DNA of 64,000 nucleotides from Litoreibacter arenae DSM 19593 (GTDB lineage Bacteria > Pseudomonadota > Alphaproteobacteria > Rhodobacterales > Rhodobacteraceae): positions 124,001 to 188,000 of the forward strand of contig NZ_KE557312.1 of the NCBI RefSeq assembly GCF_000442275.2, in the 5' to 3' direction. Positions 23,365 through 54,307 of the stretch are shown piece by piece (the first letter of the stretch is position 1; each line of letters starts with the position of its first letter). The notes under the pieces are model-generated. The model was not told where the DNA came from, ran no database searches, and saw only the letters and a program-made list of their open reading frames with translations. Both the position numbers and the translations under genes were made by a program.

Positions 23365-23376
23365 GAACACCCGTTC

Positions 23377-23410: not shown

Positions 23411-23433
23411 AGGGTCTGGCAGGTGGGAAACAG

Positions 23434-25955: not shown

Positions 25956-25964
25956 GAGAGGTTT

Positions 25965-26894: not shown

Positions 26895-26905
26895 AAGTAG
26901 ACCCC

Positions 26906-38172: not shown

Positions 38173-38202
38173 GCCGCGAGTGTGAGGTCTATGCTTTTCC
38201 AA

Positions 38203-38247: not shown

Positions 38248-39111
38248 ATGCAAACCCGCGCGCTGGAGACCTTGGTTAGAATTTTGCAGGTGCAGTCCTT
38301 TGGCGAGGCGGCCCAGTTGCAGAATATGACGCTGTCGGCGTTGAGTATGCAGATGAAAGCGCTGGAGGCGGAACTGGACGCGGAACTGTTCGACCGCAGC
38401 TTCCGCCCGCCACGGCTGACGCCCTTGGGGCGGAAGGTGGCGGAACAGGCGAAGGGGGTCATCAGCGGTGTGGCCGAATTGCACGAACTGGCCAATGCAG
38501 GGGCCGGCTTGAGCGGGTCGTTTCAACTTGGCTTCATCCAGTCCGCCAGCGCTCGCATTTTGCCGAAGTTTGTGACCTTGGCGGCGGAGCGGGAGAAGAG
38601 GGCGAGCTTTCGATACAGCTCCAACCTGTCAGAGGCGCTGACCGAGCAGGTGGCGTTGGGGCAGCTCGACGCCGCGATTGTCACGCGGGTCGAGGGCGGG
38701 GCGCGGGGGTTGCATGTGGACCTGATCGCGTCGGAGCCGATGGCGTTGGCGGTGCCTGTTGCACTGGCCCAACTGGATGCGGTGCAGCTTTCGCAGCAGG
38801 TGCCGTTCATCCATTTCCGCCCCAGCACCGGCATCGGCAAGCTGATCGCGGCATCATTGGGGGCAGAAGTGCCGCCGCAAAACACTCTGGTTCTCGACAG
38901 CATCGAGGCCTGCATGGAATGCGTGAAGGAAGGCGTCGGCTATACCGTTCTTCCGCTGCCCGACATTCGCCGTTATGCGGACGGTCGGGTGCATGTGGTG
39001 GAGGGCGCGATGGAAGGGCTGACCCGCGATCTGGTGATGCTGACCCGCGACGACGCGCAGGCGCAGCGGTGGCGGCCCAGACTGCTGTCGCTGGTCAGGG
39101 ACGCGGCTTAG
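38248..39111 (+). CDS. LysR-family transcriptional regulator
   Basis: 287 aa. The N-terminal helix-turn-helix is MQTRALETLVRILQVQSFGE with QNMTLSALSMQMKALEAELDAELFDRS. The C-terminal effector domain runs from about residue 90. It is divergent from the acyl-CoA dehydrogenase and convergent with tctA, with a 4-base overlap of the stops. The effector is unknown. The 75-base gap to the acyl-CoA dehydrogenase carries the inverted repeat at 38203-38240. Confidence 0.9.
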   Translation: MQTRALETLVRILQVQSFGEAAQLQNMTLSALSMQMKALEAELDAELFDRSFRPPRLTPLGRKVAEQAKGVISGVAELHELANAGAGLSGSFQLGFIQSASARILPKFVTLAAEREKRASFRYSSNLSEALTEQVALGQLDAAIVTRVEGGARGLHVDLIASEPMALAVPVALAQLDAVQLSQQVPFIHFRPSTGIGKLIAASLGAEVPPQNTLVLDSIEACMECVKEGVGYTVLPLPDIRRYADGRVHVVEGAMEGLTRDLVMLTRDDAQAQRWRPRLLSLVRDAA

Positions 39112-40607: not shown

Positions 40608-41086
40608 GGCAGCCTCACGAAGTTGCCCTGCGGGATCGCGACGCTGGCGATATGGGCGAAGAAGACATAGAGCACAAGCGGCACGCAGACCGCGCAGATC
40701 AGCGCGGTTTTGGGGTGCGAGGTGCGGACCAGAAAGGCGGTGGCCACGAAGGCCAGCATGGAGGTCCAGACCATGCCAAGGCGCGGCAGGCCGAACATGT
40801 AGATCACCATGACGACTGCCATGATCAGCAGGCGGCCATAGCCGCCGGACACCTCGGCGGGCGCGGGCGTCAGGTCTTCAGAGGAGAAGTGGCCGGTGAC
40901 GGTCAACCCGATGCCGGTCAGGATCGTCAGGGCCGCAAGCGTGTAGGGCCAGAAGACCGGAGACAGGATGATGTTGCGCACATTGCTTGGAGAGGACACC
41001 CAGTTGGGTATTGCGACGAGCATCAGGAAAAGCCCCGCAATGATGGCGACGATGCCGATGAGCGTTTGCCGGTGAAGGTTCTGCAT
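40604..41086 (-). CDS. tctB: tripartite tricarboxylate transporter small subunit (TctB)
   Basis: 160-aa membrane protein with four predicted helices (about residues 9-27, 45-63, 85-105 and 110-150). The family is recognised from size, hydrophobic pattern and position between tctA and tctC. The start at 41086 is the Met of MQNLHRQTLIG. Earlier in-frame codons run into the intergenic region. It assists TctA in uptake of an organic acid. Confidence 0.88.
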   Translation of the reverse strand: MQNLHRQTLIGIVAIIAGLFLMLVAIPNWVSSPSNVRNIILSPVFWPYTLAALTILTGIGLTVTGHFSSEDLTPAPAEVSGGYGRLLIMAVVMVIYMFGLPRLGMVWTSMLAFVATAFLVRTSHPKTALICAVCVPLVLYVFFAHIASVAIPQGNFVRLP

Positions 41087-41156
41087 GGGGGCGCCTCTGC
41101 AAGATAGAAAAACGGCGCGCGATGGGGATGCCACGCGCGCCGGTCAAATCACGGAC

Positions 41157-42134
41157 TTAGCCTTCTACGCGCATGCCCAGCTTATCCACCAGCGCCTTGA
41201 AGGTCTGGTATTGCTCCTGGATGAACGCATTTGCGTCTTCAGGGCTCATCACGTTGATGATAGAGCCACGTGCCTCCATCGAACTGACGAATTCCTCGTC
41301 ACCCGCTGCGGCGGCCATCCACTCGCCCCATTTCGCGGCCACCTCGTCAGAGATCCCGGCCGGTCCTGCAATGCCGGTCCAGCCGACCAGCTGTTCAAGC
41401 GCGGGCTTGCCGAGGTCCTTCGAGGTCGGCGCGTCGAAGCCGACCACCGGTTCCGCCGTTGTGACCATCAGTGGCTTCATCTGACCGTTGGCCACAAAGC
41501 TGGCCAGCGCCGACGAGTTGGTGCACAGGAAGGTCGCGGTGCCGTTCAGCACCGCCGTCACCGCCTCGCCGCCACCTTTCTGCGGGATGTGCGTGGCTGC
41601 GTTGATCGGGTCCTCGACGCCGAACTCGTCCAGCACCATCGCGCCCGCCAGATGCAGGCCGGAGCCCACGCCGGAGGAGGAGTAGCTGACCCCGCCCTCA
41701 TTTACTTTGGCGATCAGGTCTTCCATCGAATTGATGTCGGAATTTGCCTCCACCGCGCAGGCGAAGGGGTTGATCTCGTAGACCGTCACGAAGCGGAAAT
41801 CGTCCAGCGTATAGGGCAGGGTGGCCTTCATCGCCGGGTTGACCGAGTGGGACCCCACGCGGGCGAACAGCATGGTATAGCCGTCCGGCTTGGCGTTCTT
41901 GACCGCGACGGAGCCGGTCGCCCCGCCGGCACCTGTGACGTTCGCCATAATCAGCGACTGGCCGACCGCCTTGCCCAGCGGTTCTGCGATGGTGCGGGCG
42001 GAAATGTCGGTGGCCCCGCCTGCGCCGTAGGGGATGACCATGTTGATCGGCCGCTCGGGATAGTCCGCAGCGGAGGCGGCGGTGGCAAGCCCCAGTATCA
42101 TTGCGCTCACGGCGCTGAATTTCGCAAATTTCAT
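41157..42134 (-). CDS. tctC: tripartite tricarboxylate transporter substrate-binding protein (TctC/Bug family)
   Basis: 325 aa with a signal peptide (MKFAKFSAVSAMILGLATAASA). The Bug-family pattern includes YPERPINMVIPYGAGGATDI, GAGGATGSVAVKNAKPDGYT and VSYSSSGVGSGLHLAG. It binds a carboxylic acid in the periplasm and passes it to TctAB. The gene is divergent from the LysR gene at 42299, which is therefore its likely regulator. It is 70 bases ahead of tctB. The ligand may be a di- or tricarboxylate, given the nearby SDH-like and fumarase-like enzymes. Confidence 0.93.
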   Translation of the reverse strand: MKFAKFSAVSAMILGLATAASAADYPERPINMVIPYGAGGATDISARTIAEPLGKAVGQSLIMANVTGAGGATGSVAVKNAKPDGYTMLFARVGSHSVNPAMKATLPYTLDDFRFVTVYEINPFACAVEANSDINSMEDLIAKVNEGGVSYSSSGVGSGLHLAGAMVLDEFGVEDPINAATHIPQKGGGEAVTAVLNGTATFLCTNSSALASFVANGQMKPLMVTTAEPVVGFDAPTSKDLGKPALEQLVGWTGIAGPAGISDEVAAKWGEWMAAAAGDEEFVSSMEARGSIINVMSPEDANAFIQEQYQTFKALVDKLGMRVEG

Positions 42135-42298: not shown

Positions 42299-43204
42299 AT
42301 GTCCATCAGAATGCTCCGAACTTTGATCGCTGTCGAGGAGCACGGCACCTTCAGCGCGGCGGGGGAAGCGGTGTTCGTCACCCACGCCGCCGTCAGCCAG
42401 CAGATGAAAGCGCTGGAGGCGGATTGGGGCGTGACTTTGTTCGACCGCTCCAAGCGCACGCCGGAACTGACGCCAGTGGGCCGCGCGGTGGTCACCAAAG
42501 CGCGCGAGATCGTGGCGGCCTATGACAACCTGCTGCCCTCGGTCATGGGGGATGACGGGTTGCGCGGCACGTTGCAACTGGGCGGCGTGCCGACGGCGCT
42601 GACCAGCCTGATCCCGTTTGCGATCACCTCTATCAAGGCGCGGTTTCCCGAGCTGCATGTCAGCGTGACCCCGAACCAGACCAAGGAGCTGTTGATCGAC
42701 CTGGAACGCGGCGTGCTGGACGCGGCGGTGATTACCAAGCCCCATGTCGTCCCCCGCAACATGCGCTGGGTGCCGATTGCGACGGAACCGATGGAACTGC
42801 TGACCTCGGTCAACGTCATCTCGGACGACCCGTTCGAGATACTGGCGATGCAGCCCTATATCCGCTTCACCCGCAAGGCGCTGCTGAGCGACTTCATCGA
42901 CAACTGGCTGCAAGAGAAGAACATCACCGTGAAGGACACGATGGAGCTGGAGAATCTGGAGATCATCTCCAGCATGGTCCATGCCGATCTGGGGGTCTCC
43001 ATCGTTCCGCGCCGTTGCGTGCTGCCGCCGAACCCGCTGCCACTGCGCCACATACCATTGGGCGAGGGCGCACCCGTGCGCGAATTGGGGCTGATGTCGC
43101 TGGCCAACACGGTCAAGCTGCGGGTGCTGCAAGAGGTCGAGACCGAGCTGCTGCATGCGGTCGAGGTGGGCCGGTTCGATCCGTTTCCAGAGGCGGTAGT
43201 ATAG
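42299..43204 (+). CDS. LysR-family transcriptional regulator
   Basis: 301 aa with the helix-turn-helix MSIRMLRTLIAVEEHGTFSA and VTHAAVSQQMKALEADWGVTLFDRS at the N-terminus and an effector-binding domain from about residue 90. It is divergent from tctC and followed 4 bases later by a TSUP permease and then an enolase-superfamily enzyme. It probably controls the tct genes, and perhaps the SDH-like operon through the shared motif. The effector is probably the transported acid, which is not identified. Confidence 0.9.
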   Translation: MSIRMLRTLIAVEEHGTFSAAGEAVFVTHAAVSQQMKALEADWGVTLFDRSKRTPELTPVGRAVVTKAREIVAAYDNLLPSVMGDDGLRGTLQLGGVPTALTSLIPFAITSIKARFPELHVSVTPNQTKELLIDLERGVLDAAVITKPHVVPRNMRWVPIATEPMELLTSVNVISDDPFEILAMQPYIRFTRKALLSDFIDNWLQEKNITVKDTMELENLEIISSMVHADLGVSIVPRRCVLPPNPLPLRHIPLGEGAPVRELGLMSLANTVKLRVLQEVETELLHAVEVGRFDPFPEAVV

Positions 43205-43208
43205 CGTG

Positions 43209-43952
43209 ATGGAGACCGATTTCCTGCTTATCCTCGCCATCGGGGCCGCGTCTGGCGGCTTTATCAACGGGCTGGCGGGCTTCGGCACCGCGTTGTTCGC
43301 CTTGGGCTTCTGGCTGCAAATCATGCCTCCCGCGCAGGCGGTGTCGATCGTGGTCGTCATGTCGGTCATCTCGGGCTTGCAAGGGGTGTGGCTGGTGCGC
43401 CGCTCGATCCTTGACCAGCCGCGCAGGCTGGCGCGGTTCCTGTTGCCTGCGCTGGTCGGTGTGCCCTTGGGTGTGGCGGCCTTGTCGGTGCTGGAGCCTG
43501 TCGTGCTGAAGCTGATTATCGCAGGGTTCCTGATCCTTTACGGCGGGTTCTTCACGCTGCGCTCGGCCCTGCCGAAGCTGGAGCGCCCGACGCCCGTGAT
43601 CGACGGTTTGATCGGCTTCGCAGGTGGCATCCTGGGCGGGGCCGCGTCCCTGTCGGGGGCCCTGCCGACGATGTGGTGCGCCATGCGTCCATGGCCCAAA
43701 TCCGAAACGCGGGCTGTGCTGCAACCCTTCAACGTGGTGGTGCTGGGGGTCACGGCTTTGGTGTTCGCCTTCAAGGGGGCCTACACGACGCAAACGTTGA
43801 CTTATATCGCGGTGGCCTTGCCGGTGACGATGATCTTCGCGCAGATCGGCATCACGGTGTTCAAGCGGCTGACCGACGACCAGTTCCGCCGGTTGCTGAT
43901 CGCGATGATGCTGGTCTCGGGGCTGGTCTTGCTGGCGCGGGAGGTGTTTTAG
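43209..43952 (+). CDS. TSUP (TauE/SafE) family permease
   Basis: 247-aa membrane protein with about eight helices. The first segment is DFLLILAIGAASGGFINGLAG, typical of TSUP. The repeat GFAGGILGGAASLSGALPTMWC starts the second half. The ATG at 43209 is chosen over the in-frame GTG just before it. Members move sulfite, sulfoacetate or small organic acids. It lies in an operon with the LysR gene and the enolase-superfamily gene, so it may be a second carrier for the pathway. Confidence 0.9.
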   Translation: METDFLLILAIGAASGGFINGLAGFGTALFALGFWLQIMPPAQAVSIVVVMSVISGLQGVWLVRRSILDQPRRLARFLLPALVGVPLGVAALSVLEPVVLKLIIAGFLILYGGFFTLRSALPKLERPTPVIDGLIGFAGGILGGAASLSGALPTMWCAMRPWPKSETRAVLQPFNVVVLGVTALVFAFKGAYTTQTLTYIAVALPVTMIFAQIGITVFKRLTDDQFRRLLIAMMLVSGLVLLAREVF

Positions 43953-45086
43953 ATGGCGCACGTGATCGAACGGGTCGAGGTGTTGTGCTACCGCGTGCCG
44001 GTGAAGGTGCCGGTGGCGACGTCATTCGGCGTGATGCGGGACCGTCCGGCGGTGTTTGTGAAGCTGACCGATCAGGACGGATGCTTCGGCTGGGGCGAGA
44101 TCTTCGCCAATTGGCCCGCTGCCGCCGCCGAACACCGTGCGCAGCTTCTGGTGCGCGACATTTGCGATCTGGTGGTGGGGGCGGACGTGGCGCAGGCGGG
44201 CGACTTGTTCGAACAACTGACCGCGCAGACCCATATCCGCGCGTTGCAATCGGGCGAATGGGGACCGTTCCGGCAAGTGATCGCGGGGTTGGATATTGCG
44301 CTGCATGACATGTTTGCGCGGCGGGACGGAGTCTCGCTGGCGCGGTTTCTGAACAGCAAGGCAGCAGACAGCGTGCCGACCTATGCCAGCGGCATTGCCA
44401 TTAATGCGGCACCGGAACTTATCGCCCAAGCCCGCGCAGCGGGACATGATGCGTTCAAGGTGAAGATCGGTTTCGGCGCGGGTGACATGGACGATTTGCG
44501 GGACGTGGCGCGCAGTTTGCATGAGGGCGAGGCGCTCATGGCCGATGTCAATCAGGCGTGGTCCGTGGAGCAGGCGCTGGCACATGCGGACGGGATCGAC
44601 ACTGTGGGTTTGGGCTGGTTGGAGGAGCCTGTTCGCGCCGACTTGCCTGCATCGGATTGGGCGGCTTTGGCGGATGCCTTCGTCACGCCATTGGCGGGTG
44701 GCGAGAACATCACCGGCCATGCGGATTTCGACGCCGCAATCGCCGCGCGGCATCTGTCGGTGATACAGCCAGACATCGTCAAATGGGGCGGGTTGAGCGG
44801 CTGCGCCGCCGTCGCCCGCAAGGTTCGCAACGCGGGCCTGCGCTACTGCCCGCATTTTCTGGGCGGCGGCATCGGGCTGATTGCGTCCGGGCATTTGCTG
44901 GCGGCGGTTGGCGGCGACGGGCTTTTGGAGGTCGACGTGAACCCCAACCCGCTGCGCGATGCGTTTGGTGGGGCGCTGGTGGAGGGTGGCGTGTTCGCCG
45001 TTGCAGACGCGCCCGGTCTGGGCATCGACGACTTGCCCGAAGAATTGGCCCAGTTCCAGACGCTGGCGCTGGAAGCACGCGCCTAG
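43953..45086 (+). CDS. enolase-superfamily enzyme (mandelate racemase/muconate lactonizing type)
   Basis: 377 aa. Active-site residues in order: Lys169 and Lys171 (AFKVKIG), Asp198 and Asn200 (MADVNQAW), Glu224/225 (WLEEPVRAD), Glu251 (LAGGENITG) and His301 (CPHFLGGGIGLIAS). The PHFLGGGIGLIAS motif places His as an acid/base, as in the mandelate racemase subgroup. It could be a dehydratase or epimerase on a hydroxy acid. The ATG starts immediately after the TSUP stop. Its end overlaps the convergent fumarase-like beta subunit by 4 bases. Confidence 0.85.
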   Translation: MAHVIERVEVLCYRVPVKVPVATSFGVMRDRPAVFVKLTDQDGCFGWGEIFANWPAAAAEHRAQLLVRDICDLVVGADVAQAGDLFEQLTAQTHIRALQSGEWGPFRQVIAGLDIALHDMFARRDGVSLARFLNSKAADSVPTYASGIAINAAPELIAQARAAGHDAFKVKIGFGAGDMDDLRDVARSLHEGEALMADVNQAWSVEQALAHADGIDTVGLGWLEEPVRADLPASDWAALADAFVTPLAGGENITGHADFDAAIAARHLSVIQPDIVKWGGLSGCAAVARKVRNAGLRYCPHFLGGGIGLIASGHLLAAVGGDGLLEVDVNPNPLRDAFGGALVEGGVFAVADAPGLGIDDLPEELAQFQTLALEARA

Positions 45087-45748
45087 ATTACCTCGTCGCT
45101 GCGGTCGTCGGTCTCGCCGTATCGCTTGAGCGTCGCGGGACGGGTGCCTTCGTAGACGCGGTGCAGATTCTCGGCGATTTTGGCGTTTTCGCGCTCGAAC
45201 AGGCAGTCGCCGTGTTTGTCAGAGGCCACGATGAACGGCCCCATATTGTTGCACCTGATGACCCACATGGCTTGGGCGAGGCCCAGTTCCTCGTTCCAAT
45301 GGACGGCCTCCACCTTCTCGACCCCGCGCCCCAGTAATGCGCCGGTGCCGTAGCCGACGGTGGACAGGTAGATCGCACCGTTGGGGACGAAATAGGACTT
45401 GTAGTCCTTCGACGTCATGCCGCCCTTGCCGATGATGAGCTTCGCGCCCGTCTTCTCCATCCATTCCGGCAGCCATTTGGCGAAGCGGAAGGACGCGGTG
45501 GCCGTGACGGCGCCCATTTCGAAGCTGCCATCAGGGTTGATCCGCGCGGCGGGGGAGCAGTGGAAATTGGCCGCCGAGTCGCGGGGCAACTCCATGGGGA
45601 TATTGGCCTTTTCCTCCAACCCGCGTTTGTAGACGCCTTCACGGCCGGTATACATCAGCCCGTCCAGATAGACGATGTCGCCAAGTTGCAGATCGTCAAG
45701 CGCCTCTTGCGTGGGCGTCGTGCTGAGGCGGATTTTGCGCGGGCTCAT
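45083..45748 (-). CDS. class I fumarase / tartrate dehydratase-like hydratase, beta subunit
   Basis: 221 aa, the C-terminal (beta) part of class I fumarases in a separate gene. Marks: QLGDIVYLDGLMYTGREGVYKRG, the active-site stretch GAKLIIGKGGMTSKDY and GTGALLGRGVEKVEAVHWNEEL. The Fe-S subunit is encoded two genes upstream, with the CoA-transferase gene between them. Both are needed for hydration of an unsaturated dicarboxylate such as fumarate, mesaconate or similar. The split of alpha and beta by a transferase gene is unusual. It is the last gene of the operon. Confidence 0.9.
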   Translation of the reverse strand: MSPRKIRLSTTPTQEALDDLQLGDIVYLDGLMYTGREGVYKRGLEEKANIPMELPRDSAANFHCSPAARINPDGSFEMGAVTATASFRFAKWLPEWMEKTGAKLIIGKGGMTSKDYKSYFVPNGAIYLSTVGYGTGALLGRGVEKVEAVHWNEELGLAQAMWVIRCNNMGPFIVASDKHGDCLFERENAKIAENLHRVYEGTRPATLKRYGETDDRSDEVI

Positions 45749-46875
45749 TGGGCGGCCTCCGGTGATGTGATTTCGTCCGTGTCGCGCCCGAATGTGGGCG
45801 CGGGATCAAGTTTCGTGGGTGCCCATGGTGCGCGGAAACTGAGGCCCGGGGCGCGGACCGTCTGGTCCAGTTCCGGCACGGGCAGGTCATGCCAACAGGG
45901 GGAGTTTTGCATCTGCGGATGCACCAGTGTTTCGCCCAAGCTGAGGACCGGACCAGCGGGCACGTCAGCCTCGGCCAACACGGTGTCCCAGTGGCTGGCG
46001 GGCTGCGTGGCGAAGATTTGCGTTAGGGTTTGCGTGACGGTGTCTGCGTCCGCCTGCGCCAGTTCGGGGCGACCGAGCGCGAGGCACAAACGGCTGGTTT
46101 GCGCGGGCGTGTTGGCGGTGATGACAAGCTGGCCTTCGGCGCAGTCGAACCGACCGGAGAACGGCGAATCCGAGAACGCGCGGTTGCCGTCGAGGCCCCG
46201 CAACGCGCCGGTGGTCTGGTGGTTCACCGCGTAGGCGCCCATCAGATTGGTCATCGCGTCGAGCATCGAGACATGCAACTCCTGCGGCTTCAGCGGTTGT
46301 TTGGCGCGTTGGAGCAGGGCTGCGAGAATGGCGGCAACCAGCGACTGTCCCGCGACGTAATCCACGATGGGTATGCCGACGCGCAGGGGGCCGCTTTCAG
46401 GGCTTCCGGTCATCGCCATCAAACCGCTGACTCCTTGCAGGATGTGGTCATAAGCGGGGCGGGAGGCGAGGGGGCCGTCGGGACCGTAGCCCGACAGGCT
46501 GGCATAGATCAGGTCGGGCTTGCGGCTTGTTGTAGCGTCAAACCCGAGGCCAAGGCGGTCGGCCACGCCGGGGCGGAAGTTCTGAACAAGTACGTCTGCC
46601 TCGGCCACCAGCGACAAAGCGGCGTCCAGTCCGGCCTTGGATTTCAGGTCCAGCACCACGGATTTCTTGCCGGAATTCTGGCTGAGGAACGACGCGCCCA
46701 ACCCTGCGTCGCGCATTGCCTGCGTGCCGCCATGGGTGCGCACGAAATCGTCGCCGCCGGGACGCTCTACGCGGATCACCTCTGCGCCCATCAGCGCCAG
46801 TTGGCCCGTCGCATAAGGCCCCGCCAGCACATGGGTGAGGTCGATAATCCTTATGCCCGACAGGGGCTGGGTCAT
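45745..46875 (-). CDS. CaiB/BaiF-family (family III) CoA-transferase
   Basis: 376 aa. Probable catalytic Asp172 lies in the family motif RVGIPIVDYVAG. The N-terminal DLTHVLAGPYATGQLALMGAE is typical of the family. A longer frame reaches upstream into the alpha subunit gene, but the family match starts at this ATG, which overlaps the alpha subunit stop by 4 bases. It would transfer CoA from a donor such as succinyl-CoA to a carboxylic acid. With the fumarase-like hydratase it fits succinyl-CoA:citramalate/malate-type transferases. The acceptor is not established. Confidence 0.9.
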   Translation of the reverse strand: MTQPLSGIRIIDLTHVLAGPYATGQLALMGAEVIRVERPGGDDFVRTHGGTQAMRDAGLGASFLSQNSGKKSVVLDLKSKAGLDAALSLVAEADVLVQNFRPGVADRLGLGFDATTSRKPDLIYASLSGYGPDGPLASRPAYDHILQGVSGLMAMTGSPESGPLRVGIPIVDYVAGQSLVAAILAALLQRAKQPLKPQELHVSMLDAMTNLMGAYAVNHQTTGALRGLDGNRAFSDSPFSGRFDCAEGQLVITANTPAQTSRLCLALGRPELAQADADTVTQTLTQIFATQPASHWDTVLAEADVPAGPVLSLGETLVHPQMQNSPCWHDLPVPELDQTVRAPGLSFRAPWAPTKLDPAPTFGRDTDEITSPEAAQ

Positions 46876-47831
46876 TCCGCCGCCTCCATCGCGGGGGCGT
46901 CCCATTCGACGGTTTCGCGGCGTTGGTAGTCGGTGAACCAGTCGGGGTCGGTGCGGTATTCCACCCGACCATCCGCGAATACCCGCGCCACGGCGCGGCG
47001 TGACGACAGGCAGAAGGCGTGGACCGACATTTGCATGCCGCCGGTATGGCAATAACCCACTTCGATGTTGCAATCGACGACCATGGATTTGCCGACGAAG
47101 CCCATGGCGCCCATGCCGATAGAGTTGCCGATCTCCTTGAACTCCCGCTCCAGCGCTGCGATTTTCGGGTCGGAGTTTTCGCTGCCCACAGTGCGCAGGC
47201 AGGCGGCGCGTTTGCCCAAGACCATGCAGGTATCCTTGCAGCCGCCAAGCCCGATGCCGATGATCGCAGGCTGGCAGGCAAGGCCGCGTTTGCCGAACGC
47301 CACGAGGCTGTCGAGGTAGAAGCGCTTGATCCCCTCGATCCCGTCTGAGGGGAAGAGCATCCGGTAATCGGTGCCGAACAACCCGCCCTTGTGCACAGTA
47401 ATCAGGTCGATCCATTCACCGCCCGGCTCGTAGCCATACTCGATCTCCGGCGCGCCGATGCCCACATTGTTGTTGTGGTCCGTACGCCAAAGCGGATGCA
47501 CGCGATTGGGGCGCAAGGGCACGCCGTTGGTGGCGTTCGCAGTGGCGCGGCGCAGGGCGGCTTCCAGTGCGATGGGGCCGCCTTCAATCTGCGTTTCGTT
47601 GCCCATTTTGACATACCAGCGCGGGGTGCCGGTGTCGCCGCACATGGCGCGGCGGTCTTCCTTGGCGGCCTCGTAATTTTCCAGCATGGCCTGCAACACG
47701 AAGGAGGACAGGTCGCCGTCTTCCACGTCTGCGGCGGCTTGCAAACCGTCGAGATAGTCTTGCGGGATTTCGATGGCGGCCTTGTCCATCAGGGTCTCGG
47801 CGGTTTTCTGGATGATGTCGATGGGGATCAT
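46872..47831 (-). CDS. class I fumarase / tartrate dehydratase-like hydratase, alpha (Fe-S) subunit
   Basis: 319-aa N-terminal part of class I fumarases with a 4Fe-4S cluster. Candidate ligands are Cys64 (MCGDTGTP), Cys198 (GLGGCKDTC) and Cys261 or Cys254 (DCNIEVGYCHTGG). The catalytic region HPLWRTDHNNNVGIGAPEI is present. It hydrates an unsaturated dicarboxylate in the cytoplasm. Related Fe-S hydratases act on fumarate, mesaconate and L-tartrate. It lies directly after the flavoprotein gene with a 4-base overlap, an unusual linkage of oxidase and hydratase. Confidence 0.9.
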   Translation of the reverse strand: MIPIDIIQKTAETLMDKAAIEIPQDYLDGLQAAADVEDGDLSSFVLQAMLENYEAAKEDRRAMCGDTGTPRWYVKMGNETQIEGGPIALEAALRRATANATNGVPLRPNRVHPLWRTDHNNNVGIGAPEIEYGYEPGGEWIDLITVHKGGLFGTDYRMLFPSDGIEGIKRFYLDSLVAFGKRGLACQPAIIGIGLGGCKDTCMVLGKRAACLRTVGSENSDPKIAALEREFKEIGNSIGMGAMGFVGKSMVVDCNIEVGYCHTGGMQMSVHAFCLSSRRAVARVFADGRVEYRTDPDWFTDYQRRETVEWDAPAMEAAE

Positions 47832-49585
47832 TCTGCGGCCTCCACTAATGAGACGGGTTCGCCTTCGGGCAGGATCGTCTCGCCCGGTTTGACGATGGTG
47901 AACTGGACGTCCTCGCGGGTGACGTCGAGGGTGTCGCCTGTTTGGCGGGCGACGGTGAAATAGCTGCTTTCCATCGAGCCGCTGTCAGGGAAGTCCTCGC
48001 GGTAATGCGCGCCCCGGGAGTTTTCGCGGGCGAGGCCCGCCTTGGTGATGACCTCGGAGACTTCACACAGCGAGGCGAGGTTCAGCCAGTCGTGCCATGT
48101 CAGGTTGAAGGCGAGGTTGTCGCCAGCGACGCCAGCCTCCAACAGCTCCGCCTGAATGTCGGCGATGCGGGTCAGGCCGCGCTCCATCCCCGTTTCGGTG
48201 CGCATCACGCCGACATCTTCCCACATGGCTTCTTGCAGCTTGTCACGTAAGGGCTGGATCGGGGCGATCTTGTTTTGCAACGGGCGTAGGGCGCGGGTGA
48301 TTTCGGCTTCCAAAACGCTCTCGTCAGGGTCGCGGAGCGCGCCCATGTTACGAATATCCATGCCCATCACGTCGCCCGCGACGCCGCCATAAACGGTGGA
48401 GTTCGCCACGCCGTTGCCGCCCAAACGGTTGGAGCCATGGGCTCCGCCCGCGTCTTCGCCCGCCACGTAGAGACCTTCCAGCGCGGTGCGGGTGTCGGGG
48501 TCGACCACGACGCCGCCCATGAAGTAATGCGCTGTGGGCACGACCTCGACCAGCCCGGCGGCCAGATCGAAGCCTGAATCGGCGCAGCGCTTGACCATGC
48601 CGGGGAATTTGGCGCGTACGTTTTCAGGGCCAAGATGGGACATGGAGATGTATACGCCGCCATTGGGCGTCGTCGTGTTCGACTTGCGCATCTCGGCGAA
48701 GATGCCCCGGCTGACCACATCGCGCGTGGCGCGTTCGCCCTTGGCGTCGTAGTCGAACATGAAGCGGTTTTCGGCACCGTTGAGCAATTGCCCGCCCGCG
48801 CCGCGCAGGCCTTCTTCCAGAACGGTTCCGGTCATCTTGGTATGGTCGCCCGCCAAAAGTCCGGTGGGGTGAAACTGCACCATTTCCATATCGCGCAGGG
48901 GCAGGCCAACACGCAGGGCCATGGCGAGGCCGTCCATCGTCTTGTCGCCGCTGGGCGTGTGGTACTTATACATGGTCGGCCCGCCGCCGGTGCCCATCAG
49001 CACCGTCTTGGCGCGCACGAAACGGAACTTGCCGCTGCGCATGTCGATCATCAGAACGCCCGCCAGCGCGGAGCCGTCCTTGGTCGGGATCAGCCCGATG
49101 GCGCGGTGCTCTTGCAGCTTTTCGACGGGGCGGGACAGGACCTGCTCCATCAGGCGGTTGATGATCTCGATCCCTGTCAAATCGCCCTTATGGACCGTGC
49201 GGTCGGCGGTCTGGCCCGCGAAGGCCTTTTGATGCAGGGAGCCGTCGGGGTTGCGGTCGAAGAAGCAGCCGATTTCGTTTTCCAGCTCGCGGATGCGCAC
49301 CACGGCCTGCTCGCACAGCTTCCACGCCATGTCTTGATTAGGCAGCCACTTGCCGCCCTGGATGGTGTCCATGAAGTGCCGCTCGACCGTGTCGCCGCCG
49401 CCAAGGGCCACGTTGTAGCCGCCTTGCACCATGCGGGTGCAGCCGCACTTGCCGATCAGGCCTTTGACGGCGATGGTGATTTTGGTGCCTGCCGGTGCGC
49501 TTTGCTGCGCGTGCAGCGCGGCGAACATACCCGCGCCGCCGGTGCCGAGGATCAGGATGTCGGTGTCGTGTCTCTCGATCTGCAT
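47828..49585 (-). CDS. succinate dehydrogenase/fumarate reductase-like flavoprotein subunit
   Basis: 585-aa FAD protein. Marks: dinucleotide motif LILGTGGAGMFAA; substrate-site His in VQFHPTG; Arg in TRDVVSRG; His in TAHYFMGG; and Arg in GSNRLGGN. These are the dicarboxylate-binding and catalytic residues of SdhA. In SdhA the flavin is linked to a His in SHTVSAQGG. Here the same place reads GCTRMVQGG with Cys49, and the active-site Thr before Glu is Glu (TVLEEGLRG). It therefore probably acts on an altered succinate. The gene follows two small membrane subunits and an Fe-S subunit, so it is part of a membrane complex. Confidence 0.9.
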   Translation of the reverse strand: MQIERHDTDILILGTGGAGMFAALHAQQSAPAGTKITIAVKGLIGKCGCTRMVQGGYNVALGGGDTVERHFMDTIQGGKWLPNQDMAWKLCEQAVVRIRELENEIGCFFDRNPDGSLHQKAFAGQTADRTVHKGDLTGIEIINRLMEQVLSRPVEKLQEHRAIGLIPTKDGSALAGVLMIDMRSGKFRFVRAKTVLMGTGGGPTMYKYHTPSGDKTMDGLAMALRVGLPLRDMEMVQFHPTGLLAGDHTKMTGTVLEEGLRGAGGQLLNGAENRFMFDYDAKGERATRDVVSRGIFAEMRKSNTTTPNGGVYISMSHLGPENVRAKFPGMVKRCADSGFDLAAGLVEVVPTAHYFMGGVVVDPDTRTALEGLYVAGEDAGGAHGSNRLGGNGVANSTVYGGVAGDVMGMDIRNMGALRDPDESVLEAEITRALRPLQNKIAPIQPLRDKLQEAMWEDVGVMRTETGMERGLTRIADIQAELLEAGVAGDNLAFNLTWHDWLNLASLCEVSEVITKAGLARENSRGAHYREDFPDSGSMESSYFTVARQTGDTLDVTREDVQFTIVKPGETILPEGEPVSLVEAAE

Positions 49586-49926
49586 CAGATGGCCCTCAGA
49601 AGGAAAATGCCCGCAAGGAATGTCGACGCCGCGACGGCGCTGGCGGCGGCGGTTTTTTGACCGGAGGTCCATGGCAGGAACTCCAGCGCCATCAAGCGCA
49701 ACCCGCCCAGCATGTGGACGGAGAGCAGGAAGACGAGGCCGAATTCTGCGAACTTGACGATAGGGGTTTCCGCCCAATGCAGGAACCCGTCCAGCTTTTG
49801 CGGCGCGTTGAGCGCGTAGGACAGCACCCAGAAATGGGCGGGCAGAAACAAAGCGAGTGCCACACCGGAGATGCGGTGCAGCAGGAACGCGATCCAGAGC
49901 GTGTGGGTGCGGTGGCCGTGTATCAT
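49585..49926 (-). CDS. succinate dehydrogenase-like membrane anchor (SdhC-like cytochrome b subunit)
   Basis: 113 aa with three predicted membrane helices. The SdhC signature FLLHRISGVALALFL is present near the N-terminus. A second His in LLSVHMLGGLRL may bind haem b. It joins the flavoprotein and Fe-S subunits to the membrane and to quinone. Its stop overlaps the flavoprotein ATG, and its start overlaps the next anchor gene. Confidence 0.88.
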   Translation of the reverse strand: MIHGHRTHTLWIAFLLHRISGVALALFLPAHFWVLSYALNAPQKLDGFLHWAETPIVKFAEFGLVFLLSVHMLGGLRLMALEFLPWTSGQKTAAASAVAASTFLAGIFLLRAI

Positions 49927-50252
49927 GTTGCCGTCACCCCGTAGACCGCCTGCATCCCGAGGATCAGGAGTAGGGCGAGGATGGTCCACGCGGCCGCGTT
50001 CAAGCCCGTGCCGCACAAGCCTGCCCATTCCGAGAGCACCGTGCGCAACCCAATGGCTGCGTGGATGGACACGGCGACGACGAAGGTGCCGTAGAACAGA
50101 AACCACAGGATGCTGCCTTGGGTGCGGCCAAGGATTTCCGCCGCCGACAAGCCGCCTTGGATGGCGTAGATCATCACCGCAATATGCATCAGCACCAGCG
50201 GCGCCATAATCAGCGCAGTGATGCGCTGCGCCATGTAGAGCTTCAGCGTCAT
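49923..50252 (-). CDS. succinate dehydrogenase-like membrane anchor (SdhD-like subunit)
   Basis: 109 aa with three predicted helices (about residues 12-33, 46-70 and 85-105). Its start reads MTLKLYMAQRITALIMAPLVLMHIA, with QRITA as in the second anchor of SDH complexes and His23 as a possible haem ligand. The ATG overlaps the Fe-S subunit stop by 4 bases. Assigned from size, helix pattern and position between the Fe-S and SdhC-like genes. Confidence 0.85.
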   Translation of the reverse strand: MTLKLYMAQRITALIMAPLVLMHIAVMIYAIQGGLSAAEILGRTQGSILWFLFYGTFVVAVSIHAAIGLRTVLSEWAGLCGTGLNAAAWTILALLLILGMQAVYGVTAT

Positions 50253-50953
50253 TTGCGCCTCTTGAAGAAGTTGCGGGCGGTCCCGCGCTTGAGGCCCGCG
50301 ATGGCGTTCATCGGGTTCAGCTCGTTGGGGCAATGCACCGCGCAACTGCCCTGACTGTGGCAGTTGTGGCAGCCTCCCACGCCCGAGACCGCATCCAAAA
50401 TCGTCTGCTTGTTGGCGTCCTTACTGTCATTGTAGACGCTCCACGCGCGTTGCAGGGCAGCGGGGCCGAGGTAGTCGGGATTGCCCGCGACCGTGTCGCA
50501 CGCGGCGTAGCAGACGGAGCAGTTGATGCACTCGATCCCGGCATTGGCTTCCACGCGCCCGGCGCTGTCGGGGTCGATAGCCTCGATCGGGTCATGGCGG
50601 GTCTGGGTCGGGTGGTGCAGGCCTTCGGCGGCGACCCATTTGTCGAAGAACGGGTCCATATCGGTGGCCAGATCCTTGATGACGGGCAGGTTGCGCAGAG
50701 GGCCAATTTCCATATGGCCGTCTTTCAGCACCTTTTTAACGTGAGTGCGGCAGGTCCAGCGCGGCACGCCGTTCACCATCATCGCGCAAGAGCCGCACAT
50801 GCCGACGCGGCACGCATAACGGTAGCTGAGCGTCGGGTCGGCGTATTGCTGGATCCACGCGACGACGTCTAGGACAGTCTGGTTATCCTCCATCTTCACA
50901 TCGAAGGGCTGATAAGCCCCCGCAGCCCCGCCACGCCAGACGGATACGGACAT
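50249..50953 (-). CDS. succinate dehydrogenase/fumarate reductase-like iron-sulfur subunit
   Basis: 234 aa with the SdhB cysteine pattern. The 2Fe-2S region is CRVGMCGSCAMMVNG with the fourth Cys in RWTC. The 4Fe-4S cluster is CINCSVCYAAC with CP in VHCPNELNP. The third cluster region is GCHNCHSQGSC, with one Cys more than the usual CHSIMNC pattern, so the third cluster may be 4Fe-4S rather than 3Fe-4S. It passes electrons from the flavoprotein to quinone. It is the first gene of the seven-gene operon, divergent from the GST gene at 51143. The Met of MSVSVWRGG is chosen as start. Confidence 0.9.
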   Translation of the reverse strand: MSVSVWRGGAAGAYQPFDVKMEDNQTVLDVVAWIQQYADPTLSYRYACRVGMCGSCAMMVNGVPRWTCRTHVKKVLKDGHMEIGPLRNLPVIKDLATDMDPFFDKWVAAEGLHHPTQTRHDPIEAIDPDSAGRVEANAGIECINCSVCYAACDTVAGNPDYLGPAALQRAWSVYNDSKDANKQTILDAVSGVGGCHNCHSQGSCAVHCPNELNPMNAIAGLKRGTARNFFKRRK

Positions 50954-51064: not shown

Positions 51065-51142
51065 TATAATTACACCGGTTGCACCTTCCCAAACCGCGCA
51101 TCGCCGTTATTGTCGGATGGCAATGTCAGGGGAGGAACGGGG

Positions 51143-51757: not shown

Positions 51758-52577
51758 CGGGCTGTCCGACATTCTGGCCGCGCGGTTCATGGATGCCCCT
51801 GACGTGCCAGAGGAATTGCAGGACAACGCTGTGTTGCGAAGAATCGCGGGGCGGGCGTCGTGTCGGGCGTTCCTGTCCGAGCCGGTTCCGTTGGAGGTGC
51901 TGAAAGCGCTGAGCGCTGTGGCGCTGTCGTCCCCGTCGAAAAGCGACCTGCAACAGCGCGACATCGTGATTGTCGAGGATGCGGAGGTGAAGGCGCGGCT
52001 GGTGGAGCTTGTGTCTGCGCAAGCTTGGATTGCGGGCGTGCCGTCTTTGGTGGTCATCTGCGCCAACAACTGCCGCCAGCGGCAGCTGCATGCGATGCAA
52101 GGGCTGGATTTCGCCAACGACCATCTGGACGCGTTTTTCAACGCCAGTGTTGATGCGGGGATCGCCTTGGCAAGCTTCGTCATCGCGGCGGAGGCGGCTG
52201 GCTTGGGCTGCTGTCCGATCAGCACCATCCGCAACCACGCGCAGGAGGCGAGCGAGTTGTTGGGCCTACCGGACCATGTGTTTCCGGTGGCGGCCTTGGC
52301 ATTGGGGTATCCTGCGAGCGAGGGGCCGATCAGCCCGCGATTGCCCTTGCGGGCGACGGTGCATGTGGACCGGTTCAGCGAAGACCGTGCGCGGGATGTG
52401 GAAGAATACGATGCCCACCGCGCGCAGGTGCAGCCCTACCGGACGCAGCGCAGTACGCCGCTTTATGGCAGCAGTGACGCTTACACGTGGTCGATGGACA
52501 AGGCCCGCCAGTATAGCCTGCCCGAGCGGGTGGACTTCGGGGCTTTCATCAAGGCCAAGGGCTTCAAGCTGGACTAG
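51750..52577 (+). CDS. nitroreductase-family FMN oxidoreductase
   Basis: 275 aa. Flavin-binding marks are RRIAGRASCRAFLSEPV near residue 30, LSSPSKSDLQQRDIVIV, and the region AEAAGLGCCPISTIRN. The family reduces nitro, quinone or enone compounds with NAD(P)H. The gene overlaps the GST by 8 bases and ends inside the convergent ThDP enzyme stop. The C-terminal extension (about 60 residues, PYRTQRSTPLYGSSDAYTW) is typical of one group in this family. The substrate is unknown. Confidence 0.86.
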   Translation: MTDGLSDILAARFMDAPDVPEELQDNAVLRRIAGRASCRAFLSEPVPLEVLKALSAVALSSPSKSDLQQRDIVIVEDAEVKARLVELVSAQAWIAGVPSLVVICANNCRQRQLHAMQGLDFANDHLDAFFNASVDAGIALASFVIAAEAAGLGCCPISTIRNHAQEASELLGLPDHVFPVAALALGYPASEGPISPRLPLRATVHVDRFSEDRARDVEEYDAHRAQVQPYRTQRSTPLYGSSDAYTWSMDKARQYSLPERVDFGAFIKAKGFKLD

Positions 52578-54175
52578 TGCGCCGCCCCGCTGGGGGCGGG
52601 CAGGCCCTCGATCTGGACGTTGACGCAGGCGGGTTTGCCGCTTTGCACCGCGCGGTCGAGGGCTGCGTCGAGGTCGGCCAAGTCCGTGACGTATTCGCCA
52701 TGCGCACCCAAGCCTTTCGCTGCCTCGTCGTAGCGCGCACCGCTGAGTTCGCAGCCGATCAGGCGGTCGGGGCCGTAGTCGCGCAGCTGGATTTGGTGCT
52801 CGGCGTTCCAGCGCTCGTCGTTGCCGATAACGACCACATAGGGGAGACCCACACGGGCGGCGGTCTCGAATTCGGCGAAGTGGAATCCCACGGTTCCGTC
52901 GCCCATCAGGGCGAACACAGTGGCGTCGGGGTGGGCGGCTTTGGCGCCGATCCCGTAGCACAGCCCGCCGCCGATAGCGCCGGAGATGCCGTTGGTGACG
53001 CGGAGATCGGCATTCGTGGCGGCTTGCGCCCATTGGCCGAACTCGCCGCCATCGCAGATCATCACCGAGTGCTCGGCCTTGTCGATTTGCCGCTGCACGG
53101 CGGCGCAAAGCTGGGCGGGCGTGATCTTGCCGGACGGCACGGTGTCGCCCTCGCTGAAGCTGCGAGCGGCGATATGGGTTGCGACCTCTTTGCGCCAAGC
53201 GTCATGGCCGCCTTGGCCCGCGCTGACAAGCGCGTCAATGCTATCCCGCGGATCGGCGGCGAAGCAGGCTTGAAGGCGGGTGCCAAGGTTTCGGTGGGCG
53301 CGGTCGCGCTCGGTGGCGCAGGGTTGAACGACGATCCAGTCGCAGGCTGCGGCGACGACGTTTGTGCCGCCGAACCCCAGCGTGAAGTCGATGCGTTTGC
53401 CCAAGGTCACGATCAAATCGGCCTGCGCCAAGGCTTTGCCGACATTGCCCAAGGCTGGGTCTTTCAGCCCGCGCGGGCTTTCCATCGCGATCGCGGGCGC
53501 GCCCAACGCATCCTGCAACGCGGCGAGTTTGCCGCGGTTGCGCGTGTCATTCATGGAGGGGCCGCACAGGATCAGCGGGCGTTTCGCCTTGGCGATGGCC
53601 TGCGTGATGTTCTGGAGGTCGGCGTCGGACAGGGGCATCGGCTCTTTGCCGAGCGCCGAAGGGATCTCACCGCCCGTCGCATCTGCGTCGACCAGATCGA
53701 AGGGCAGGGCCATATGCACGGGGCCGGACCTGCCGGACAAAGCGATGCGCAAGGCGCGGGCGGTGTCGGTGCCGAAATCGGTGGCACGGGTCGGGCGGAA
53801 GGACAGCTTGGTGACGGGCGTGGTCATCGGCACTTGGTCGAGTTCCTGAAACGCGCCTCTGCCGTCTTGGCCAAGGGGCGAGTCGCCGGTGAGCAGCAGG
53901 ACGGGGGTTTCCGACTCGGACGCCGTGAACAGCGGTCCCAATGCGTTCGCAGCGCCCGCGCCAGCGGTGACCATGGCGACGCCGACGGTGCCGGTCAGCT
54001 GCGCGTAGGCCTCGGCCATGAACACCGCGGCGGCCTCGTGACGGGTGTGGGTGATCTCGATCCCTACATCAAAGCAGGCATCATAGACCGGCATGATCTG
54101 GTTGCCCGACAGCGAAAAGATGCGCGTGACGCCTGCTGCGGCCAGCGTTTTTACCAGAAGGTCTGCGCCTCTCAT
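52574..54175 (-). CDS. thiamine diphosphate-binding enzyme (decarboxylase/lyase of the acetolactate synthase family)
   Basis: 533 aa with the three domains of the family. Catalytic Glu is in THTRHEAAAVFMAEAYAQ. The ThDP/Mg motif is GDGTVGFHFAEFETAARVG followed by VVIGNDERWN. It could act as a decarboxylase or carboligase on a 2-keto acid. The start at 54175 has AAGGA before it, and the Met 31 codons upstream is less likely. It is divergent from the GlxA-type regulator at 54308, so it is that regulator's likely target. The closest activities (benzoylformate, sulfopyruvate or 2-hydroxyacyl-CoA) cannot be separated here. Confidence 0.88.
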   Translation of the reverse strand: MRGADLLVKTLAAAGVTRIFSLSGNQIMPVYDACFDVGIEITHTRHEAAAVFMAEAYAQLTGTVGVAMVTAGAGAANALGPLFTASESETPVLLLTGDSPLGQDGRGAFQELDQVPMTTPVTKLSFRPTRATDFGTDTARALRIALSGRSGPVHMALPFDLVDADATGGEIPSALGKEPMPLSDADLQNITQAIAKAKRPLILCGPSMNDTRNRGKLAALQDALGAPAIAMESPRGLKDPALGNVGKALAQADLIVTLGKRIDFTLGFGGTNVVAAACDWIVVQPCATERDRAHRNLGTRLQACFAADPRDSIDALVSAGQGGHDAWRKEVATHIAARSFSEGDTVPSGKITPAQLCAAVQRQIDKAEHSVMICDGGEFGQWAQAATNADLRVTNGISGAIGGGLCYGIGAKAAHPDATVFALMGDGTVGFHFAEFETAARVGLPYVVVIGNDERWNAEHQIQLRDYGPDRLIGCELSGARYDEAAKGLGAHGEYVTDLADLDAALDRAVQSGKPACVNVQIEGLPAPSGAAH

Positions 54176-54307
54176 ATATGTCGTCCTTGTGTGAAATGTC
54201 GTCGGGCCATCTGAGCCGATCTTGGCGTGGGCGTCCAGCGTGACAGTTGATGCCGAAGCCATTAGCACCCAAACTACAGTTTGAACCCGAGCCGCAGGAC
54301 ATTCTTT

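What the first reader, a model, noticed from the sequence alone, without database searches (positions are those of the whole stretch)
45083..50953. Seven-gene operon that joins an SDH/FRD-like complex, a two-subunit fumarase-like hydratase and a CoA-transferase
Seen directly: the genes sdhB-like, sdhD-like, sdhC-like, flavoprotein, hydratase alpha, CaiB-type transferase and hydratase beta all run on the minus strand with 4-base overlaps or less. Established: class I fumarase relatives hydrate fumarate or mesaconate, family III CoA-transferases can move CoA from succinyl-CoA to malate or citramalate, and SDH makes a trans-unsaturated dicarboxylate. Inference: the operon oxidises a substituted succinate (for example methylsuccinate), hydrates it and activates the product with CoA. 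A later lyase is not in the window. The housekeeping SDH is expected elsewhere.
Basis: partly seen in the sequence, partly recalled or inferred. Interest (0 to 1): 0.82.

Follow-up and report, generated by a model that had tools for sequence, protein, structure and literature searches.

The report
Candidate operon for degrading 3-sulfopropanoate
A marine-type bacterium carries a second, altered set of 'succinate to fumarate to malate' enzymes that, judging by its neighbours in related genomes, probably works on sulfur-containing look-alikes of those acids and so may help recycle organic sulfur.

Summary
The seven-gene operon is real (45083-50953, minus strand; overlaps of 4 bases, once 1). It is not the housekeeping SDH, which lies elsewhere with the normal active site. 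Six genes (FeS, two anchors, flavoprotein, hydratase alpha and beta) form a block complete in 51 of 51 long relative loci; the CoA-transferase is accessory (9 of 80). A TauE-type exporter is linked in 38 of 51. Rarer neighbours point to C3-sulfonates, not methylsuccinate: YeiH exporters, sulfite dehydrogenases, SuyAB/SlcC/ComC-like genes, CuyA, a sulfolactaldehyde-reductase-family gene, SSADH-type genes. All 24 sampled family genomes with the flavoprotein hold Xsc, SuyB or CuyA, against 120 of 174 without. Roseovarius nubinhibens, for which a thesis (known to me second-hand) reports 3-sulfopropanoate -> sulfoacrylate -> sulfolactate, carries the same operon. Best reading: a complex-II-like enzyme oxidises 3-sulfopropanoate to 3-sulfoacrylate, which the hydratase turns into 3-sulfolactate. 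Substrate, product and direction are inferred. Rivals: hydration at the sulfonated carbon with direct sulfite release; sulfosuccinate; methylsuccinate. The flavoprotein family has invariant active-site changes (flavinylated His to Cys, Thr to Glu); most partner hydratases have altered signature motifs.

The parts
50249..50953 (-). iron-sulfur subunit (SdhB/FrdB-like), three Cys motifs visible in the translation
49923..50252 (-). membrane anchor 1 (Sdh_cyt; sdhD-like)
49585..49926 (-). membrane anchor 2 (Sdh_cyt; cytochrome b556 type)
47828..49585 (-). flavoprotein; separate clade from SDH, Cys at the flavinylation site (C49) and Glu for Thr in the active site (E257)
46872..47831 (-). hydratase alpha (class I fumarase N-terminal type, variant motif CGDTG)
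45745..46875 (-). family III CoA-transferase; accessory, in 9 of 80 relative loci
45083..45748 (-). hydratase beta (class I fumarase C-terminal type, variant motif TATASFRF)
43206..43952 (+). TauE/SafE-family exporter, linked to the block (38 of 51 long loci)
42299..43204 (+). LysR regulator, linked to the block (37 of 51 long loci)
43953..45086 (+). mandelate-racemase/enolase-superfamily protein, sometimes linked (5 of 80 loci)
39108..42134 (-). tripartite tricarboxylate transporter: TctC (41157-42134), a TctB-sized gene between (40604-41134, not scanned), TctA (39108-40607); possible uptake system; TctC-type in 22 of 51 long loci
52574..54268 (-). TPP enzyme nearest in sequence to benzaldehyde lyase and 2-hydroxyacyl-CoA lyase among solved structures, linked in 12 of 51 long loci
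36970..38202 (-). 3-sulfinopropanoyl-CoA desulfinase (NF042439 over cut-off); probably a separate sulfur route

Best explanation
The core six genes form a C3-sulfonate catabolic module. A membrane-bound complex-II-like dehydrogenase (flavoprotein, FeS subunit, two anchors) oxidises 3-sulfopropanoate, the sulfonate isostere of succinate, to 3-sulfoacrylate (isostere of fumarate) and passes electrons to quinone. The two-subunit Fe-S hydratase adds water to give 3-sulfolactate (isostere of malate). Sulfolactate is then desulfonated by whatever the host has: SuyAB, CuyA after transamination, or decarboxylation plus Xsc. The TTT system probably imports the substrate; TauE/SafE exports sulfite. Shown: gene content, conservation, active-site changes, linkage and co-occurrence. 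Inferred: substrate, product and direction.
For: (1) Block complete in 51 of 51 long loci; TauE in 38 of 51. (2) Sulfolactate-type genes beside it: UxaA-family pair (SuyAB-like), 2-hydroxyacid dehydrogenase (SlcC-like) and Ldh-family (ComC-like) in two Methylobacterium and a Paracoccus (L086); the two dehydrogenases in P. versutus and P. ferrooxidans; UxaA pair in two haloarchaeal loci, Ldh-family in one. (3) CuyA over its curated cut-off (552.9 vs 450) about 9 kb from the block in G047, which shows neither Xsc nor SuyB. (4) Supply-type genes: sulfolactaldehyde-3-reductase family over cut-off (369.0 vs 348) just upstream in L101; SSADH-type in NT-26 (690.7 vs 646.35), L112 (616.7, below cut-off), and by similarity L068, L078, L094, L101. 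(5) Any of Xsc, SuyB or CuyA: 24 of 24 genomes with the flavoprotein vs 120 of 174 without, one-sided p=0.00027; Xsc alone 21/24 vs 103/174. PMC11489063 names these three as the aerobic exits from DHPS/sulfolactate (passage). (6) Roseovarius nubinhibens ISM carries the block with CaiB (L065); a thesis cited in PMC11489063 puts 3-sulfopropanoate -> sulfoacrylate -> sulfolactate in that strain. (7) One flavoprotein family pairs with three kinds of hydratase/lyase, as expected if its product is an alkene. (8) The window genome holds Xsc, CuyA and a normal SDH.
Against: Apart from TauE, LysR and TTT, the sulfonate genes are rare in the 80 loci: YeiH 5, SSADH 5, SlcC 2, reductase 2, SuyB 1, ComC 1, sulfite dehydrogenase 1; no baseline for TauE linkage was measured. 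SuyB alone is not enriched (6/24 vs 31/174, p=0.28). Mesorhizobium liriopis L074 has the block but no Xsc, SuyB or over-cut-off CuyA-type match; L076 and L119 have neither Xsc nor SuyB and only sub-cut-off CuyA-type matches. MmsA-type genes adjoin the block in Pseudomonas MPC6 and lie near it in Cupriavidus P-10, with no sulfolactate genes seen, which fits direct sulfite release better. SSADH plus beta-hydroxyacid dehydrogenase could serve DHPS to sulfolactate instead. The thesis is known only through one sentence. Co-occurrence may reflect a general sulfonate lifestyle. The SuyB-, SlcC- and ComC-like proteins of M. oryzae score below curated cut-offs.
Confidence: 0.57

Rival explanations
1. 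Same substrate, different hydration: the variant hydratase adds OH to the sulfonated carbon of 3-sulfoacrylate; the product is the bisulfite adduct of malonate semialdehyde and falls apart to sulfite and malonate semialdehyde.
For: Sulfite exporters or sulfite oxidation genes beside the block; MmsA-type gene overlapping the hydratase beta gene by one base in Pseudomonas MPC6 (TIGR01722 695.3 vs 448.5) and a divergent one upstream, one predicted gene away, in Cupriavidus P-10; hydratase signature motifs changed (CQDTG to CGDTG or CADTG, GPTTxxRM to TATASFRF).
Against: SuyAB/SlcC/ComC-like genes or CuyA also adjoin blocks with the variant hydratase (L086; G047, hydratase alpha 86% to the window's); R. 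nubinhibens has the variant hydratase and its reported route runs through sulfolactate. MmsA met the threshold in 0 of 80 loci.
Confidence: 0.15
2. Sulfosuccinate is oxidised to sulfofumarate; hydration at the sulfonated carbon releases sulfite and leaves oxaloacetate.
For: Same chemistry as mesaconate hydration with sulfonate in place of methyl (inference); TTT and dicarboxylate-symporter genes and sulfite exporters linked.
Against: Does not explain the linkage to sulfolactate-, cysteate-, SSADH- and sulfolactaldehyde-reductase-type genes. No paper holding both 'sulfosuccinate' and 'sulfolactate' was found.
Confidence: 0.09
3. One reading: methylsuccinate is oxidised to mesaconate, hydrated to citramalate and activated by the CoA-transferase.
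For: Class I fumarases can hydrate mesaconate (PMC4682846, start of abstract in listing); CaiB matches the succinyl-CoA:mesaconate CoA-transferase model at 182.7 bits, far below its cut-off of 700.
Against: CaiB in only 9 of 80 loci; sulfite/sulfonate neighbours unexplained; published methylsuccinate route uses a methylsuccinyl-CoA dehydrogenase and an MmgE/PrpD isomerase (PMC12290011 abstract).
Confidence: 0.05
4. Reverse direction: sulfolactate is dehydrated and sulfoacrylate reduced to 3-sulfopropanoate, which is exported.
For: A TauE protein is called a probable 3-sulfopropionate exporter in Enterococcus gilvus (PMC11489063 passage); Cys at the flavinylation site removes the His link that (recalled) favours succinate oxidation; the best curated match of the flavoprotein is an archaeal fumarate reductase model, TfrA, 470.2 bits against a cut-off of 718.
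Against: Hosts are mostly aerobic genera (recalled); TTT or TRAP uptake-type systems and sulfite-releasing or sulfite-handling genes are linked.
Confidence: 0.04
5. A different small sulfonate or sulfinate, or a sulfur-free succinate analogue, is the substrate.
For: Substrate is inferred from context only; a 3-sulfinopropanoyl-CoA desulfinase lies in the same window.
Against: The desulfinase does not track the CoA-transferase: 3 of 8 CaiB-bearing genomes (window, L048, L054, L057, L058, L065, L075, L110) vs 17 of 42 others have it (16 of 42 over cut-off); CaiB-bearing L059 and L098 were not in that search.
Confidence: 0.1

Closest known systems
Succinate:quinone oxidoreductase / fumarate reductase (complex II family)
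   Same: Four-subunit plan, FAD domain, catalytic His/Arg residues (H239, R288, H353, R387), FeS subunit, two Sdh_cyt anchors
   Different: 31% identical to the host's own SdhA; separate clade (97/99 support, 13-row tree); flavinylated His is Cys and active-site Thr is Glu in all 12 family members aligned; 408.0 bits against a TIGR01812 cut-off of 567.3
Archaeal CoM/CoB fumarate reductase flavoprotein TfrA (NF004900)
   Same: Best curated match of the flavoprotein, 470.2 bits
   Different: Below its cut-off of 718; window enzyme has membrane anchors, which TfrAB lacks (recalled)
Class I (Fe-S) fumarase / L-tartrate dehydratase TtdAB
   Same: Two-subunit alpha/beta plan, Fumerase and Fumerase_C domains, three Cys of the alpha subunit aligned with FumA (that these bind the cluster is recalled)
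   Different: Variant motifs at CQDTG, RDxxH and GPTTxxRM; in plasmids all 12 records with a relative at E up to 1e-40 also carry the flavoprotein, one of them only in part
3-Sulfopropanoate -> sulfoacrylate -> sulfolactate route of Roseovarius nubinhibens (J. Mayer thesis, as cited in PMC11489063)
   Same: Would be the same pathway; that strain has this block (L065)
   Different: No gene assignment found in the papers I could search; thesis itself not seen
Sulfolactate/cysteate/sulfoacetaldehyde desulfonation: SuyAB, CuyA, Xsc
   Same: Present in many hosts and sometimes adjoining
   Different: Would act downstream; separate families
Methylsuccinate/itaconate cluster (PMC12290011, abstract)
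   Same: Catabolises a substituted succinate
   Different: Dehydrogenation at the CoA-ester level by an acyl-CoA dehydrogenase, plus an MmgE/PrpD isomerase

Membership tests
Succinate dehydrogenase (complex II) proper | Scores over the SDH/FRD flavoprotein cut-offs (TIGR01812 567.3, TIGR01816 727.35) | tested here: not met
   408.0 and 330.2 bits
Succinate dehydrogenase (complex II) proper | His that bears covalent FAD | tested here: not met
   Cys49; Cys in all 12 family members aligned, His in E. coli SdhA; host's own SdhA has S-H-T
Succinate dehydrogenase (complex II) proper | Thr-Glu pair in the active site | tested here: not met
   Glu-Glu was the only form in 95 motif matches over 95 loci; Thr-Glu in E. 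coli SdhA, NadB and the host's SdhA
Complex II superfamily | Catalytic His/Arg residues, FeS subunit, Sdh_cyt anchors | tested here: met
Class I fumarase / TtdAB superfamily | Fumerase and Fumerase_C domains over cut-off | tested here: met
   220.1 vs 25 and 76.5 vs 22.2 bits; alpha also over TIGR00722 (203.8 vs 100.65), beta below TIGR00723 (113.8 vs 145.15)
Class I fumarase / L-tartrate dehydratase proper | CQDTG and GPTTxxRM motifs; equivalog cut-offs | tested here: not met
   CGDTG and TATASFRF; TtdB model 127.1 vs 264, TtdA model 144.6 vs 365, fumarate hydratase model 193.4 vs 276
Methylsuccinate/mesaconate pathway | CoA-transferase as a fixed part of the operon | tested here: not met
   9 of 80 loci
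3-Sulfopropanoate catabolism | Linkage to sulfite/sulfonate genes | tested here: met
   TauE 38 of 51 long loci, other sulfonate genes in 1 to 5 of 80 each; CuyA and sulfolactaldehyde reductase family over cut-off beside the block in G047 and L101
3-Sulfopropanoate catabolism | Known downstream desulfonation route in the same genome | tested here: inconclusive
   24 of 24 sampled family genomes with the flavoprotein, but of 49 named genomes L074 shows none, and L076 and L119 only sub-cut-off CuyA-type matches
3-Sulfopropanoate catabolism | Enzyme activity with 3-sulfopropanoate and 3-sulfoacrylate | not testable with these tools
   needs bench work
Family III CoA-transferase | CoA_transf_3 domain | tested here: met
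   328.2 vs 23.3 bits; below the cut-off of all 7 specific families listed

The most novel reading that the evidence does not exclude
The variant class-I-fumarase-like hydratase is itself a desulfonating enzyme: it adds water to the sulfonated carbon of 3-sulfoacrylate (or sulfofumarate), so that the C-S bond breaks on its own and sulfite leaves. That would be a 'dehydrogenate, hydrate, lose sulfite' way of breaking C-S bonds, separate from Xsc, SuyAB and CuyA, built from altered relatives of citric-acid-cycle enzymes and found on chromosomes and plasmids.
Probability: 0.2. Interest if true: 0.85.

Novelty: new variant of a known kind. Interest (0 to 1): 0.62.

Why it matters
3-Sulfopropanoate is made by Enterococcus gilvus from sulfoquinovose-derived DHPS, and from homotaurine by other bacteria. 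PMC11489063 (2024; passages) says its bacterial degradation had not been reported before, apart from the thesis, and shows that Bilophila wadsworthia can respire it; a 2026 review calls that mechanism unclear (PMC12890257, passages). If the reading is right, this gives an aerobic 3-sulfopropanoate step its genes, shows relatives of the succinate-fumarate-malate enzymes retuned for sulfonates, and supplies a sequence marker (flavoprotein with the Glu-Glu pair and GCT loop) for finding the pathway. It would also correct annotations such as 'succinate dehydrogenase' and 'fumarate hydratase'.

Tried and rejected
Rejected: ordinary SDH plus fumarase (own SDH elsewhere, 31% identity, different active site). 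Rejected as core: the CoA-transferase. Tested and not supported: CaiB as partner of the 3-sulfinopropanoyl-CoA desulfinase (3 of 8 vs 17 of 42 genomes). Considered: Fox of Variovorax TBEA6 as a relative; [quoted passage not shown] Considered: sulfolactyl-CoA cleavage by the linked TPP enzyme (nearest solved structures benzaldehyde lyase and 2-hydroxyacyl-CoA lyase); not testable here. Considered: a succinyl-CoA to malyl-CoA module as in the 3-hydroxypropionate bicycle; not pursued once CaiB proved accessory. No structure prediction was run.

Limits: relatives come from one scan that kept the best 80 of 563, so they lean towards close kin. Of the 80, 51 are 20 kb or longer; shorter contigs cannot show missing neighbours. 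Marker counts use my own identity thresholds (44 to 60% by marker, 35% for TRAP; coverage 60%). Whole-genome tests gave 50 of the 80 loci, mostly the longer ones; 49 were held (L098 was not). Genomes in the 198-genome sample (about one per genus) are unnamed and related, so the one-sided Fisher p values are not corrected for kinship or for the five comparisons made. In one search the row SdhA_own was read on the wrong strand and is ignored; one search reads it correctly. CaiB was scanned without its first residue. The pick of genes is a simple script (length, codon-position composition in 65 and 70) and misses some genes.
Full report
Observation. The seven genes exist at 45083-50953 on the minus strand in the stated order, with overlaps of 4, 4, 1, 4, 4 and 4 bases. 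Pfam confirms an FeS subunit, two Sdh_cyt anchors, an SDH/FRD-type flavoprotein, both halves of a class I fumarase-like hydratase and a family III CoA-transferase. The genome has a separate, normal SdhA on contig C7 (783.2 vs 407.7 bits) and only this one PF05681 gene.

Not the housekeeping enzyme. The flavoprotein is 31% identical to the host's own SdhA, 34% to E. coli SdhA and 31% to NadB, and groups with its relatives in a clade apart from these three references (97/99). At the His that carries FAD in SDH it has Cys49, and at the Thr before the active-site Glu it has Glu (E257-E258). These residues are invariant in all 13 aligned members, Proteobacteria, Rhodococcus and haloarchaea included (E. 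coli SdhA and NadB as references), and the Glu-Glu motif was the only form in 95 motif matches over 95 loci. The other catalytic residues (H239, R288, H353, R387) are kept. Which E. coli residues are catalytic is recalled; the alignment is. The best curated match is TfrA, an archaeal fumarate reductase model, well below its cut-off (470.2 vs 718).

The hydratase. In the window and most relatives CQDTG is CGDTG (CADTG in two) and GPTTxxRM is TATASFRF; 6 of the 95 loci show no CGDTG or CADTG motif: two Methylobacterium, Rhodococcus RHA1, two haloarchaea and L117, whose contig ends at the flavoprotein. That these motifs line the active site of class I fumarases is recalled, not shown here. The two Methylobacterium loci and RHA1 pair the same flavoprotein family with a near-canonical hydratase (CQDTG, GTTTSMRM), and the haloarchaeal loci have an ArgH-annotated protein beside the flavoprotein instead (the L038 protein is Lyase_1). 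Three kinds of hydratase or lyase beside one dehydrogenase family suggest that its product is an alkene. In the plasmid collection all 12 records with a relative of hydratase alpha at E up to 1e-40 also hold the flavoprotein, in one (P. pantotrophus) only in part.

Conservation. One scan of named genomes returned the best 80 of 563 relatives. In the 51 loci of 20 kb or more, FeS, both anchors and both hydratase genes accompany the flavoprotein in 51 of 51. Linked genes (51 long loci): TauE-type 38, LysR 37, TctC 22, TctA 19, TPP enzyme 12, nitroreductase 12, CaiB 7 (9 of all 80). In 8 of those 9 CaiB lies between the hydratase genes, as in the window; in the ninth no hydratase beta match follows it on the 6.6-kb contig.

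Sulfonate neighbours. Annotated plasmids show TauE/SafE sulfite exporters, YeiH or 'sulfate' exporters, sulfite dehydrogenase or oxidase, UxaA-family pairs, Ldh-family and hydroxyacid dehydrogenases, SSADH and MmsA near the block. Curated models over cut-off: CuyA about 9 kb from the block in G047 (552.9 vs 450), sulfolactaldehyde 3-reductase in L101 (369.0 vs 348), SSADH in NT-26 (690.7 vs 646.35), MMSDH in Pseudomonas MPC6 (695.3 vs 448.5). NT-26's reductase (324.3 vs 348) and L112's SSADH (616.7 vs 646.35) are below, and the M. oryzae SuyB-, SlcC- and ComC-like proteins are below every curated cut-off listed, so those names rest on family and context. In the 80 loci these genes are rare: YeiH 5, SSADH 5, SlcC 2, reductase 2, SuyB 1, ComC 1, sulfite dehydrogenase 1, MmsA 0. 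TauE is the one frequent sulfur-type neighbour, and I measured no baseline for it.

Co-occurrence. In 198 genomes of the window's family, the flavoprotein occurs in 24. Xsc: 21 of 24 with it, 103 of 174 without (p=0.0047). SuyB: 6 of 24, 31 of 174 (p=0.28). CuyA: 12 of 24, 51 of 174 (p=0.038). Any: 24 of 24, 120 of 174 (p=0.00027; all p values, one-sided). In 49 named genomes with the block, Xsc 42 and SuyB 14; four have neither: L074, L076, L100, L119. Of these, L100 has a CuyA-type (TIGR01275) match over cut-off, L076 and L119 only below it, L074 only chance-level matches. This agrees with a sulfolactate product but could also reflect a general sulfonate lifestyle.

Link to a reported pathway. 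PMC11489063 (passages seen) says that bacterial degradation of 3-sulfopropanoate had not previously been reported, except that a thesis found R. nubinhibens ISM to metabolise homotaurine through 3-sulfopropanoate, which goes on via sulfoacrylate and sulfolactate; the paper itself shows Bilophila wadsworthia respiring 3-sulfopropanoate. R. nubinhibens carries the block with CaiB, plus TauE, LysR and TTT (L065); it has Xsc, a CuyA-type match over cut-off and no PF04295 match. No paper naming genes for the step was found (passages of PMC12890257 and PMC13219744); the library holds open-licence papers only, and three further papers of the listing were not opened.

Mechanism. Oxidation of 3-sulfopropanoate to 3-sulfoacrylate with electrons to quinone (inferred from complex II anatomy), hydration to 3-sulfolactate (inferred), then desulfonation by the host's existing enzymes. 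Direct sulfite release by hydration at the sulfonated carbon remains open: MmsA-type genes adjoin or lie near the block in two lineages and the hydratase motifs are changed. The roles of the CoA-transferase, MR-type protein and TPP enzyme are unsettled.

Verdict. Sulfonate use in general I hold at about 0.8, the specific 3-sulfopropanoate to sulfolactate reading at 0.57.

Noticed in passing
window 36970-38202 (-): 3-Sulfinopropanoyl-CoA desulfinase (NF042439, 655.8 vs 600 bits); also near the block in Sulfitobacter THAF37 and L080, but it does not track the CoA-transferase.
   Followed up: partly
window 52574-54268 (-): TPP enzyme nearest to benzaldehyde lyase and 2-hydroxyacyl-CoA lyase, linked to the block in 12 of 51 long loci and placed directly after the flavoprotein in Methylobacterium oryzae and radiotolerans; role unknown.
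   Followed up: partly
window 43953-45086 (+): Enolase-superfamily protein, best solved relative 3ddm, titled only 'putative'; a sulfolactate racemase is a guess.
   Followed up: no
window 51110-52577 (+): Glutathione transferase and nitroreductase genes divergent from the operon, seen near it in some relatives (GST 4 and nitroreductase 12 of 51 long loci; a nitroreductase also near CuyA in G047).
   Followed up: no
G000 C5:58874-60836 (L149): A second Xsc copy found as two overlapping matches in different frames, near a YeiH-type exporter and a TRAP transporter.
   Followed up: no
L102: Contig titled Oceanobacillus sp. HTM 045 carries this alphaproteobacterial-type block (79% flavoprotein identity); perhaps a mislabelled or mixed assembly.
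   Followed up: no
L038, L039: Haloarchaeal versions: flavoprotein and FeS genes without annotated anchors, beside an ArgH-like lyase, a UxaA-family pair and TauE; a possible separate archaeal form of the pathway.
   Followed up: partly
window 13715-28408: Sugar-acid-type genes: MR-family protein, IlvD/Edd dehydratase, TRAP transporter, galactarate/altronate dehydratase family.
   Followed up: partly
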